Below, one piece after another: positions 39,702 to 42,866 of a stretch of 64,000 nt of DNA. Source of the stretch: a virus. A program made the position numbers and the translations under genes. How positions within the stretch are numbered: position 1 is the first letter of the stretch; each line of letters starts with the position of its first letter. Where the stretch lies: positions 1-64,000 of the IMG/VR virus record IMGVR_UViG_3300021960_000048; one strand, written 5' to 3'. The notes beneath the pieces were generated by a model. That model did no database searches. It saw only the letters and a program-made list of their open reading frames with translations, and was not told the origin of the DNA.

Positions 39702-42343
39702 CAGATAACCCCCTGCGCCCCTCTTCTCATTGAACGGTTGATGATTTTTGGCAGTTCACGTTCAATCATAGCCTGTATCTCATGTTTGTTCAACCCATCA
39801 CCGTTAATCACAATATCGCCAAATGATATGTTAGCACCCATACCACCGCTTGCACTAGCGATACCTGCCCCTATTTGTTTGAGTTTGTCATTTGTCAAAG
39901 GTATAACTGCTTCTCGGTCTCCACCTTCACCTATCATACCTACTGTTGGTTTACTAACAATACCACCTTTAGCGAACAAAGGCATTGGGGTAGGTTCTAT
40001 TCCTCTAGCCAATAACGCCGCATTGATTTCTTCTTGGGTCATTCCGGCTGTTCCGCCCGTACCTCTGTTACCCAAAGCATTTCCTAATGTACTTCTGTTT
40101 GACATATTAACAGATTTGGCTATTTCATCTGCACTACGTGGGTCGAGTAATGAGTCTTTTACTCTGCCGAAGAACTTTGTGAAACGATTATTCTTCAAGA
40201 CGTTGCCAAGTTGTTGGACTGCGCTTTTCAAAGCATTAACTTTGTTCGTTATGAAGTTGATTGGACGCTTTAAGAAATTAAGACTCTTCAAGAAACTACC
40301 TGCACCACCAGCCGCGCCTCGGAACATACGTCCTAAACCGGGCAACCTTTTGCCAATCTTCTCAAATATTTTTGCGAGACCCTTCCCGAACCCTACGAAG
40401 TCGGCTAAAGTGTGGAAGAACTTAGACGCTGTTTCATTAGTCCCTTCAAAGAAAACACCGAGAGTCCTCAAGGCATATCCAACCCCACTGAATAGAACTA
40501 TTGCTTCCATTACAAAAGAGAAAAGTGTAGTAAATATGTTCAGTAATCCCCTCAATGAACCGTCGAATGTAAGCACCGCATCAACCACGTCCATGAACAT
40601 ATCAAACAGTCTTACTAATGGAGTTGCCAAAGCCGTTAATATTCGACCAAGTAATGCTAGTGCGGGTAGTATTCTTACTACTGCCTTCAAGACTTCTATG
40701 AACAAAGGTACAGTAGCGACCATTGTGTCGATTGCAGACGGTAGATTTGTTTTCAGAGTATTTGCTAATTCTATTATCTGCGGTGTCAATTTTTCAACGA
40801 CTCCACCCGGTTCGTTCAGAGTCTTACCAAAGTCGCTAAGGACACCCGTAGTTTTCTGTCCTTGATAATCTACATCGAATAAGGCTCTAACGAAATGAAC
40901 ACCGAGAGTAATCGACGCTTCTTCAACCTGTGATTTGAAAACACGCAATGCTTCAAAAGATGATTGTTGTAGTGTGGTTGAGAATTGTTCTGTTGTACCT
41001 GCCGCATTTTTGTTTGCTGCTACAAGTTCATCGAACGCATCTACTTGAGACATCAATGAAAGGACCGCCGTACCACCACGAACACCGAATATCTCCAGTG
41101 CTTGAGCCGCAGTAATGTTACCATCACGCATTTGATGAAGTAAGTCCGTTAATGAAGTCAGACCCATAGTCTGCATCTCAACTGTCTTGATTAAGTCATC
41201 AGACCTTTTCTTCAATGACGATTGTCTTTCTTCGGCTGTTTTCATAGCAGCAGATGTCTCCATCAACTGTATTGTTCTCTTTTGAGATGTTATACTAAGT
41301 TCTTCATTAGCCATTTCCAATCTTCTGATTTGTTCTAACTCAGATTCAGTCAACTCTCTTTGTTGTGAAGCCGCTCTAAATCTAATCTCTGAGATTGCTA
41401 ATTGATTCTTTCTTTCAGACATAGCCAAATCATCTAACTCACCTTGTAAGTTATTGACTTCCATAGTTAGTCTTGATGTGATACGTGCTGTAACGTCCAT
41501 CTGCGTCATAGTGGCTTTCAGTGTTGCATTTGCAGACTTACCTGCATCAGATAATACGAATACATCTAACCCCAAATCATTGATAACTTTTCTAGCATCG
41601 AAAGTTGGTTTCAATAGTTTATTTATGGACATACGTAAACCTGTACCTGCCACTGTACCACGTAGACCTGCATTACCTAACGCACCGATAGCCGCCGCTG
41701 TTTCTTCAATTCCAATACCTGCTGCTGCTGCAACTGGAGCAACGAACTTCATTGCTTCTCCAAGACCGACCACATCTACGTTTGCACTTGTGAATGTCTT
41801 AACTAGAACGTCAGTTGCTTCGTTCAGTTGACCCATCTCCATACGGAACGCCTTAACTGATGCTACACCGATTGTTGTAGCAGTTTGAATATCAGTTCCA
41901 CCTGCGATAGCGAACTTCACTAACTTGTCAATAACTTCATCATCAACCATCTCATTAAATGAAACACCTGCGATAGCCAAAACCTCGGCTGCCTGTGCTG
42001 CTTGAGACGCAGTAAATCTTGTTGACTTACCTATGTCTCTGATTGTATTCTCAAGTGTCATGGCTTCTTCGCCTGTCGATTGCATAACCGCTTGTGTACG
42101 GACTAGCGTATCGTTAAACTCAATGAATAGTTCACTGGATTGTTTGAGAAACCCTGCTGTCAGAGATGCACCGACGGCACTGGCTGAAAGAGTGATTGCT
42201 TTGAAATTAGCATTCATCACCGTACCCAAACGAGATACTTTTCCACCTGCTGCTAGTAGAGACCTACCTACAGCAGACATGTTCTTACGAAACGACGTAG
42301 TATCAGCCGTAACCCTTGTCATAATGGTAGTTACTTCTGTCAT
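39701..42343 (-). CDS. Tail tape measure protein (880 aa)
   Basis: The N-terminal 230 residues match the TP901-type tape-measure core: STRFTASQAAQAAEVL, then GLGEAMKFVAPVAAAAGIG and ALGNAGLRGTVAGTGLR. A coiled-coil region (about 270-380), hydrophobic segments in the middle and an end with AKGGIVSKPTVGMIGEGG follow. Tape measures set tail length at roughly 1.5 angstrom per residue, giving a tail of about 130 nm if the rule holds. The start codon overlaps the end of the frameshift extension (TAATG). No sheath gene was found, so the tail is probably non-contractile. Confidence 0.9.
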   Translation of the reverse strand: MTEVTTIMTRVTADTTSFRKNMSAVGRSLLAAGGKVSRLGTVMNANFKAITLSASAVGASLTAGFLKQSSELFIEFNDTLVRTQAVMQSTGEEAMTLENTIRDIGKSTRFTASQAAQAAEVLAIAGVSFNEMVDDEVIDKLVKFAIAGGTDIQTATTIGVASVKAFRMEMGQLNEATDVLVKTFTSANVDVVGLGEAMKFVAPVAAAAGIGIEETAAAIGALGNAGLRGTVAGTGLRMSINKLLKPTFDARKVINDLGLDVFVLSDAGKSANATLKATMTQMDVTARITSRLTMEVNNLQGELDDLAMSERKNQLAISEIRFRAASQQRELTESELEQIRRLEMANEELSITSQKRTIQLMETSAAMKTAEERQSSLKKRSDDLIKTVEMQTMGLTSLTDLLHQMRDGNITAAQALEIFGVRGGTAVLSLMSQVDAFDELVAANKNAAGTTEQFSTTLQQSSFEALRVFKSQVEEASITLGVHFVRALFDVDYQGQKTTGVLSDFGKTLNEPGGVVEKLTPQIIELANTLKTNLPSAIDTMVATVPLFIEVLKAVVRILPALALLGRILTALATPLVRLFDMFMDVVDAVLTFDGSLRGLLNIFTTLFSFVMEAIVLFSGVGYALRTLGVFFEGTNETASKFFHTLADFVGFGKGLAKIFEKIGKRLPGLGRMFRGAAGGAGSFLKSLNFLKRPINFITNKVNALKSAVQQLGNVLKNNRFTKFFGRVKDSLLDPRSADEIAKSVNMSNRSTLGNALGNRGTGGTAGMTQEEINAALLARGIEPTPMPLFAKGGIVSKPTVGMIGEGGDREAVIPLTNDKLKQIGAGIASASGGMGANISFGDIVINGDGLNKHEIQAMIERELPKIINRSMRRGAQGVI

Positions 42344-42866
42344 TATCTACCGACCATCCTTTTCGCTCTTGACGCTTGGCTCGCCCTACGATGTGAGTCA
42401 GCCGCGTTGCGGTTCTTTACGGAGAAGGCGCTTATAAGGAAATGAGTTTCTCTAGGGTCTAATGATTTCCACTCTGTTAAACTCATGCCGAGATAGGCTA
42501 ATAACTCGAAGAGGAATTGACCTTCGTCAGACTCGGCATACTCTTCGATTAATCTAAAGGGACGTTAACTGCTTCCATTATTGCTGTTGTTAGTTGCCCT
42601 ATTACTGTCAATGGAAGTCTTTGAAAACTATCCCATGTAAGTGTTTTATCACACTTCATCATCATCTCAAAGACCATAAGCATTCCAAGTTTTTCTGCTC
42701 TATCTTCTTCGTTTAATCCCCTCAATTCTGGGTTCGCTTTCAAGCCGTTGTATTCCTTTACAGATAGGGGTAAAACTTTGATTTCATCTACTCCTATATT
42801 CAAATGGTTTACAACCACAATTACTGGTTCTGAAGCCTGTTCAATTATATTATCTATCCATGTCAT
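42343..42866 (-). CDS. Tail assembly chaperone GT fusion made by -1 frameshift (about 174 aa)
   Basis: The zero-frame protein (42549-42866) ends shortly after a slippery heptamer, C CCT TTA, read from minus-strand positions 42561-42555. A -1 slip continues through 70 codons (RLIEEYAESDEGQF...KRMVGR) to the TAA at 42343-42345, which has no convincing start of its own. A perfect 8-bp stem (42541-42548 with 42506-42513) starts 6 nt after the heptamer, with a small TGAC/GTCA hairpin in its loop. This is the classic G/GT arrangement before the tape measure, as in lambda. The T part probably binds the tail tube protein. Confidence 0.85.
42506..42561 (-). promoter_or_regulatory. Programmed -1 frameshift site: slippery heptamer plus hairpin
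   Basis: CCCTTTA lies in phase as C CCT TTA. A 6-nt spacer, GATTAA, contains the zero-frame stop. TCGAAGAG then pairs with CTCTTCGA at the far end, with a 27-nt loop. All elements of a canonical -1 signal are present. Confidence 0.85.
42549..42866 (-). CDS. Tail assembly chaperone G, zero-frame product (105 aa)
   Basis: This small, mostly helical protein (MTWIDNIIEQASEP...) lies between the tail tube and tape-measure genes, the usual place of gpG-type chaperones. Most ribosomes should end here at the TAA at 42549-42551; a minority would slip to make the GT fusion. It presumably coats the tape measure during assembly. Identification rests on position, size and the frameshift signal. Confidence 0.8.
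   Translation of the reverse strand: MTWIDNIIEQASEPVIVVVNHLNIGVDEIKVLPLSVKEYNGLKANPELRGLNEEDRAEKLGMLMVFEMMMKCDKTLTWDSFQRLPLTVIGQLTTAIMEAVNVPLD

What the first reader, a model, noticed from the sequence alone, without database searches (positions are those of the whole stretch)
42343..42866. Canonical -1 programmed frameshift making a G/GT tail chaperone in an apparently archaeal virus
Seen directly: the zero-frame ORF crosses C CCT TTA, a 6-nt spacer, and then a perfect 8-bp stem (42541-42548 with 42506-42513) whose loop holds a second 4-bp hairpin. The -1 frame stays open for 70 codons and ends in TAATG with the tape-measure gene, and it has no convincing start of its own. Known: siphoviruses such as lambda make G and GT this way just before the tape measure. 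The geometry fits textbook slippage. Confirmed cases in archaeal viruses seem few, to my knowledge, so this is a good test case.
Basis: partly seen in the sequence, partly recalled or inferred. Interest (0 to 1): 0.8.

Follow-up and report, generated by a model that had tools for sequence, protein, structure and literature searches.

The report
Tail-chaperone ribosomal frameshift in archaeal-like virus
Just before its tail-ruler gene, this probably archaeal tailed virus carries a well-conserved signal that should make some ribosomes slip back one base, giving a short and a long form of a tail-building helper protein, as many tailed phages do.

Summary
It is best read as -1 programmed ribosomal frameshifting making a G / G-T tail assembly chaperone pair. 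All 46 IMG/VR contigs found with the G alignment, plus the window (47 of 47; 31 distinct 75-nt segments), keep T in the -1 phase and have a shift-prone heptamer 7-10 nt before the G stop: CCCTTTA 13, GGGAAAN 16, GGGGGAA 18. The predicted G fold is nearest to solved phage tail chaperones. The stem is less secure: it is intact only in close relatives and shows no compensatory change. A different hairpin follows GGGGGAA in 10 of 11 distinct segments. The archaeal host is inferred mainly from the clamp loader and polymerase; structural genes hit bacterial phages. The device is already predicted for haloarchaeal viruses. A good new member of a known kind, untested at the bench.

The parts
42549..42866 (-). 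Zero-frame gene G, 105 aa, tail assembly chaperone (short form)
   Evidence: ORF; conserved in 46 contigs; model nearest to YqbN 3klu Z 6.8 and HK97 chaperone 2ob9 Z 5.7; no Pfam or PHROG family
42872..42877 (-). GGTGAT, ribosome-binding-like motif 5 nt before the G start codon
   Evidence: Read by eye; that it fits an archaeal Shine-Dalgarno is recalled
42555..42561 (-). Slippery heptamer C CCT TTA
   Evidence: same heptamer in 13 of 47 contigs, other shift-prone heptamers at the same place in the other 34
42549..42554 (-). 6-nt spacer, containing the zero-frame stop TAA (42551-42549)
42506..42548 (-). Hairpin: 8-bp outer stem 42548-42541 with 42513-42506, inner pairs 42534-42531 with 42517-42514 and 42529-42526 with 42521-42518
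   Evidence: p 0.013 against codon shuffles; no compensatory change in 7 distinct relatives
42343..42564 (-). -1 frame open stretch with the T domain (70 codons after the slip, stop 42345-42343); read as a G-T fusion of 174 aa
   Evidence: dN/dS 0.17-0.36 in this frame against five relatives
39701..42343 (-). Tape-measure protein gene, start overlapping the T stop (TAATG)
   Evidence: PF10145 E 2.6e-33; phrog_1533 E 8.8e-53
42881..43318 (-). Probable tail-tube protein gene just upstream of G
   Evidence: Weak phrog_290 'minor tail protein' E 6.3e-4; role inferred from position

Best explanation
The locus is a tail assembly chaperone gene decoded in two ways. Most ribosomes read G (105 aa) and stop at TAA 42551-42549. 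A minority slip back one base on C CCU UUA: tRNA-Pro moves from CCU to CCC and tRNA-Leu from UUA to UUU. They then read 70 codons of the -1 frame, making a G-T fusion of 174 aa in a minor fixed ratio. By analogy with lambda gpG/gpGT, G would coat the tape-measure protein and T would recruit the tail-tube subunit. A hairpin 6 nt downstream probably aids the slip in this virus. Shown here: the frames, the conserved heptamer position, selection on the -1 frame, gene order, and a chaperone-like predicted fold. Inferred: that slippage occurs, its rate, the role of the stem, the binding partners and the archaeal host.
For: Heptamer, 13-nt overlap and -1 frame are in the sequence. 47 of 47 contigs (31 distinct segments) keep the -1 phase and a CCCTTTA, GGGAAAN or GGGGGAA heptamer 7-10 nt before the G stop. 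T frame dN/dS 0.17-0.36 for five pairs, while the same bases in the zero frame show no bias and six stops. 21 of 31 distinct segments have no ATG, GTG or TTG in the T frame near the junction. Downstream ORF of at least 150 aa starts within 12 nt of the T stop in 42 of 47; 9 of 9 tested are tape measures. G model nearest to YqbN, HK97 chaperone and a PICI protein, Z 6.8, 5.7, 5.0, next row 3.2. Same device predicted in HCTV-1, whose joined chaperone CDS and GGGAAAC I saw.
Against: No expression or peptide data. 5 of 31 distinct segments have an ATG, and 5 more a GTG, in the T frame near the junction. The window's stem has no compensatory change and is lost or altered in L012 and L043; the synonymous-constraint test over it is not significant (2 of 11 against 11 of 29 codons, p 0.29). 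No sequence family covers G or T, the chaperone match rests on fold Z values under 8, which can mean only a common arrangement, and viral-library fold hits are weak, none at E 0.001.
Confidence: 0.92

Rival explanations
1. T is a separate small protein made by termination-reinitiation or leaky initiation at the G stop, and the heptamer is incidental.
For: L012 has TGATG, L063 and L066 TAATG, L055 and L061 an ATG at the stop, and L012, L043, L065, L067, L071 and L083 a GTG there, all in the T frame.
Against: 21 of 31 distinct segments, the window among them, have no ATG, GTG or TTG in the T frame from 15 nt before to 31 nt after the heptamer start; the shift-prone heptamer is nevertheless kept in 47 of 47 contigs.
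Confidence: 0.05
2. The two frames are one gene broken by a sequencing or assembly error, or a pseudogene.
For: A frame break in one metagenomic contig could arise so; in the window alone it cannot be told apart.
Against: The same -1 break is in 31 distinct segments from independent contigs, both parts are under purifying selection, and the break sits on a shift-prone heptamer in all 47.
Confidence: 0.01
3. Frameshifting occurs, but the window's hairpin has no part in it; the heptamer and the nearby stop codon suffice.
For: No compensatory change; stem lost or altered in L012 and L043, and L012's substitute stem is no more stable than chance (z -0.62, 44 of 200); the GGGAAAN clade has no shared hairpin (mean z -0.36 over 13 segments); synonymous constraint not significant; 45-nt windows at the site show no signal in the CCCTTTA group (z 0.17, though that length cuts the stem).
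Against: Stability p 0.013 (window) and 0.007 (L002/L003) against codon shuffles; a hairpin follows the slip site in the sister GGGGGAA clade.
Confidence: 0.4

Closest known systems
Lambda gpG / gpGT -1 frameshift (PMC5009743, passages read)
   Same: Gene pair just before the tape measure, short G plus rare -1 fusion G-T, slip near the end of G
   Different: Lambda's slip sequence (GGGAAAG, recalled) differs; no sequence similarity of G or T found to named families; host domain probably archaea
Haloarchaeal tailed viruses HCTV-1, HCTV-2, HCTV-5, HVTV-1 (PMC5009743, PMC8211752, passages) and Hardycor1 (PMC7911831, passages)
   Same: Predicted -1 shift in the tail chaperone pair before the tape measure; HCTV-1 site GGGAAAC seen in its record, like part of the present family
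   Different: The window's site is CCCTTTA; in HCTV-1 the site is 34 nt before the G stop and another CDS lies before the tape measure; homology of the T parts was not tested
HF1-group and HSTV-2 haloviruses (PMC7230728, PMC5009743, passages)
   Same: Archaeal viruses with a predicted frameshift in the chaperone pair
   Different: Predicted +1, not -1
SEA-PHAGES phages (PMC10885494, passages) and corynephage phi16 (PMC5506516, passage) with GGGGGAA
   Same: GGGGGAA, as in 18 of the 47 contigs, is used or predicted there for frameshifting
   Different: Bacterial phages; the window itself has CCCTTTA
Giardiavirus CCCUUUA (PMC8230311, passages)
   Same: Identical heptamer proposed for -1 frameshifting
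   Different: Eukaryotic dsRNA virus, capsid-polymerase fusion; that paper's own sequences do not support the -1 model

Membership tests
G/GT-type tail assembly chaperone pair with -1 frameshift | Two overlapping frames, the second -1, directly before a tape-measure gene | tested here: met
G/GT-type tail assembly chaperone pair with -1 frameshift | Shift-prone heptamer near the end of G, conserved in relatives | tested here: met
   47 of 47 contigs, three heptamer types
G/GT-type tail assembly chaperone pair with -1 frameshift | T frame under selection and without its own start | tested here: met
   dN/dS 0.17-0.36; the window has no start, but 10 of 31 distinct segments have an ATG or GTG near the junction
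G/GT-type tail assembly chaperone pair with -1 frameshift | Conserved stimulatory RNA structure | tested here: inconclusive
   Window p 0.013 but no compensatory change and loss in L012. A structure is not present in all known cases (recalled)
G/GT-type tail assembly chaperone pair with -1 frameshift | Sequence match of G to a known chaperone family | tested here: inconclusive
   No Pfam or PHROG family, no tblastn hit in phage records; these families are known to diverge (recalled)
G/GT-type tail assembly chaperone pair with -1 frameshift | Fold of G like solved tail assembly chaperones | tested here: met
   3klu Z 6.8, 2ob9 Z 5.7, 5ir0 Z 5.0, next 3.2; all under Z 8, so supportive rather than proof
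G/GT-type tail assembly chaperone pair with -1 frameshift | Fusion protein made in vivo in a fixed minor ratio; G binds tape measure, T binds tube | not testable with these tools
   Needs reporter, proteomics or pull-down
Archaeal tailed viruses (magrovirus-like) | Archaeal-type replication genes | tested here: met
   RFC-type clamp loader 217 bits to RFC small subunits against 33 to DnaX, in 4 of 4 related records; B-family polymerase
Archaeal tailed viruses (magrovirus-like) | Known host or close relation to a classified archaeal virus | tested here: inconclusive
   No relative in genome contigs; Poseidoniales virus records not held; terminase, portal, capsid and tape measure hit mainly bacterial phages and the GroEL is group I

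The most novel reading that the evidence does not exclude
One lineage of probably archaeal marine viruses has exchanged its frameshift heptamer two or three times (CCCTTTA, GGGAAAN, GGGGGAA) at an otherwise fixed recoding site. A 3' hairpin is present where the heptamer re-pairs poorly after the slip (GGGGGAA) and absent where it re-pairs well (GGGAAAN). It would be a natural experiment on what archaeal ribosomes need for -1 frameshifting. So few changes on the tree cannot yet prove the link between heptamer and hairpin, and L062 (GGGGGAA without the hairpin) is an exception.
Probability: 0.35. Interest if true: 0.55.

Novelty: new member of a known kind. Interest (0 to 1): 0.42.

Why it matters
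Frameshifting in archaea is little tested. The passages I read describe the haloarchaeal viral cases as apparent or likely, and the cellular case they treat as demonstrated is a fucosidase gene. This locus adds 47 natural versions (31 distinct) of one recoding site, probably read by archaeal ribosomes, with three slip sequences and with or without a hairpin, so the requirements could be tested directly in reporters. It also corrects annotation: a start-to-stop ORF list of the window (60 aa and over) does not contain the T domain.

Tried and rejected
Searches that gave nothing: genome-contig scans with the T and G alignments found no relative, so no host link came from there. Pfam and PHROG scans of G and T gave no significant family. 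tblastn of G against phage records gave no match at E up to 10. Rfam at gathering thresholds and the tRNA scan gave nothing in the window. The solved-structure sequence search with G gave nothing. The T model gave no convincing fold, and viral-library fold hits of G were weak, none at E 0.001.

Rejected: sequencing error, since the break is shared by 31 distinct segments. Covariation of the window's stem was looked for and not found. Synonymous constraint over the stem was tested and is not significant. Covariation of the GGGGGAA hairpin is weak (2 of 10 pairs with a change on both sides; 27 of 500 shuffles reach the covariation score, 132 of 500 the percentage paired), so its case rests on stability against codon shuffles (mean z -1.74 over 11 distinct segments, single p from 0.003 to 0.787) and on position. 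I left L062 out of that alignment because it lacks the hairpin. L036, a contig that begins inside T, could not be judged and is not among the 47. The start-codon lists printed are in the wrong frame for loci whose overlap exceeds 60 nt (a slip in my script); start codons are therefore taken.

Literature: no paper held has all of 'Poseidoniales', 'virus' and 'ribosomal frameshift'. The one paper with 'magrovirus' and 'frameshift' has the latter only in a reference on chelatase. Not held: the magrovirus discovery paper, the 2025 Poseidoniales virus paper and the haloarchaeal genome snapshot. One paper opened for GGGGGAA was irrelevant.
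Full report
Observation. The -1 frame has its own stop 3 nt before the heptamer (TAA 42567-42565), so any frame change must happen within 13 nt, and the heptamer fills most of that stretch. In 22 window ORFs that I chose, in-frame X XXY YYZ occurs at 23 of 12,911 codon positions, so a chance heptamer in this overlap has a probability of about 0.009. The window lies in an IMG/VR virus record of 82,791 bases.

Relatives. A search with the 105-aa G found 11 contigs, all with the same heptamer and -1 overlap. 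Searches with alignments reached 46 contigs, with G identity down to 41% among 13 aligned members. With the window that makes 47, with 31 distinct 75-nt segments from the heptamer on; several contigs are near-copies. All 47 keep T in the -1 phase and carry one of three heptamers 7-10 nt before the G stop: CCCTTTA 13, GGGAAAN 16, GGGGGAA 18. One more contig (L036) begins inside T and could not be judged. The T domain has a D-E-G-Q-F-L type motif in the 13 aligned members, with small changes; further variants are. An ORF of at least 150 aa starts within 12 nt of the T stop in 42 of 47; in L057 and L058 it starts 59 nt downstream by the ATG/GTG/TTG rule, and in L003, L062 and L063 the contig ends too soon. 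Nine of nine such ORFs tested are tape-measure proteins.

Selection. Between the window and five relatives the T frame has dN/dS 0.17-0.36 and G 0.06-0.26. The T bases read in the zero frame show no bias, and in the window hold six stops.

Tree. On a tree of G, T and the tape-measure N terminus with the heptamer codons left out (34 rows), the heptamer type needs 3 changes, one more than the minimum. The CCCTTTA group is one starred clade (100/99) beside the main GGGGGAA clade. L062, with GGGGGAA, falls among GGGAAAN rows on a long branch without starred support, so that third change is unsure.

RNA structure. Against shuffles that keep the T protein and its codons, the window's downstream 50 nt are unusually stable (p 0.013), as are those of L002/L003 (p 0.007). 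The other five distinct segments of the clade are not (p 0.16-0.56). Seven of the eight stem pairs are kept in L004, L005 and L011; the stem is partly G.U in L043 and gone in L012. L012 instead folds another 7-8 bp stem starting 6 nt after the heptamer, but no more stably than chance (z -0.62). No pair shows compensatory change. Synonymous constraint over the stem is not significant, and 45-nt windows at the site show no signal in this group (z 0.17; that length cuts the stem). In the GGGGGAA clade, 10 of 11 distinct segments form a hairpin with a CCCTCG/CGAGGG core (one with a G.U pair) about 5-6 nt after the heptamer. The clade's mean z is -1.74, and the lowest z of the scanned offsets is at the site (-2.09); compensatory support is slight. 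The GGGAAAN clade has no shared hairpin (mean z -0.36 over 13). The heptamer and the frames are thus the secure elements; the stem is a plausible helper.

Alternative starts. In the T frame from 15 nt before to 31 nt after the heptamer start, 26 of 31 distinct segments have no ATG and 21 of 31 no ATG, GTG or TTG. The exceptions include L012 (TGATG) and L063/L066 (TAATG). Reinitiation may add to, or in a few viruses replace, slippage, but it cannot serve the family as a whole.

Protein. The G model (mean pLDDT 78.5) is nearest to YqbN (3klu, Z 6.8), the HK97 tail assembly chaperone (2ob9, Z 5.7) and a PICI-element protein (5ir0, Z 5.0); the next row is 3.2. All are under Z 8, so this supports rather than proves the assignment. 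That YqbN is itself a prophage-type tail chaperone is recalled. Several hits in the viral library are named tail assembly chaperones, but none reaches E 0.001. The T model is helical and well predicted (88.9), with no convincing match.

Host. For an archaeal host: a clamp loader far nearer to RFC small subunits (1iqp, 2chq, 217 and 213 bits; that these are archaeal is recalled) than to bacterial DnaX (33 bits), present in 4 of 4 related records across the three heptamer types; and a B-family polymerase whose top-ranked phage-record hits are haloarchaeal viruses, although most of the 568 matching records are of bacterial phages, 313 of them Synechococcus. An HHH-domain protein with a sub-threshold ERCC4 match fits too. 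Against: the GroEL is group I, bacterial type, and terminase, portal, capsid and tape measure hit mainly bacterial phages, although close archaeal viruses may be missing from that collection. A virus of marine archaea, magrovirus-like, is likely (about 0.75, set a little below my first estimate of 0.8 after adding these structural-gene hits) but unproven.

Known context. Passages read in PMC5009743, PMC8211752 and PMC7911831 report predicted -1 sites for HCTV-1, HCTV-2, HCTV-5, HVTV-1 and Hardycor1, and +1 for HSTV-2; PMC7230728 predicts +1 for the HF1 group. I saw HCTV-1's annotated joined chaperone CDS and its GGGAAAC. GGGGGAA is reported for SEA-PHAGES data (PMC10885494, passages) and corynephage phi16 (PMC5506516, passage). 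CCCUUUA was proposed for Giardiavirus, and the paper I read passages of does not support it there (PMC8230311). The two ICTV profiles of Poseidoniales viruses that I read whole do not mention frameshifting. So the kind is known. What is added is a well-sampled, probably archaeal family with three exchanged slip sites.

Noticed in passing
window 26555-28129 (+): A group I (GroEL-type) chaperonin, nearest in phage records to Bacteroides and Vibrio phage chaperonins at about 42-45% identity, in a virus with an archaeal-type clamp loader; it lies on the opposite strand to its neighbours.
   Followed up: partly
window 4400-10379 (-): Two large proteins (847 and 1141 aa) with collagen repeats and a CBM_5_12 carbohydrate-binding module each, probably tail-fibre-like.
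   Followed up: no
window 61295-63508 (-) and L049 558-1772 (-): A CobT-like VWA-domain protein near an AAA_5/CbbQ-type ATPase, a pairing that recalls the VWA and AAA genes annotated in HCTV-1.
   Followed up: no
window 44159-45523 (-): A glycosyltransferase-like ORF (judged by eye, no search run) lies between the head and tail genes; a homologue sits at the same place in L012 504-1838.
   Followed up: no
upstream of the heptamer in GGGGGAA and GGGAAAN loci (e.g. L068, L065): 45-nt windows starting about 40-60 nt before the end of the heptamer are more stable than codon shuffles in both clades (mean z about -0.9 to -1.5), and a GGTGG-rich stretch precedes many of the heptamers; possibly an upstream modulator.
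   Followed up: no
L062 3315-3321: GGGGGAA on a branch among GGGAAAN viruses, without the downstream hairpin: a possible independent exchange of the slip site.
   Followed up: partly
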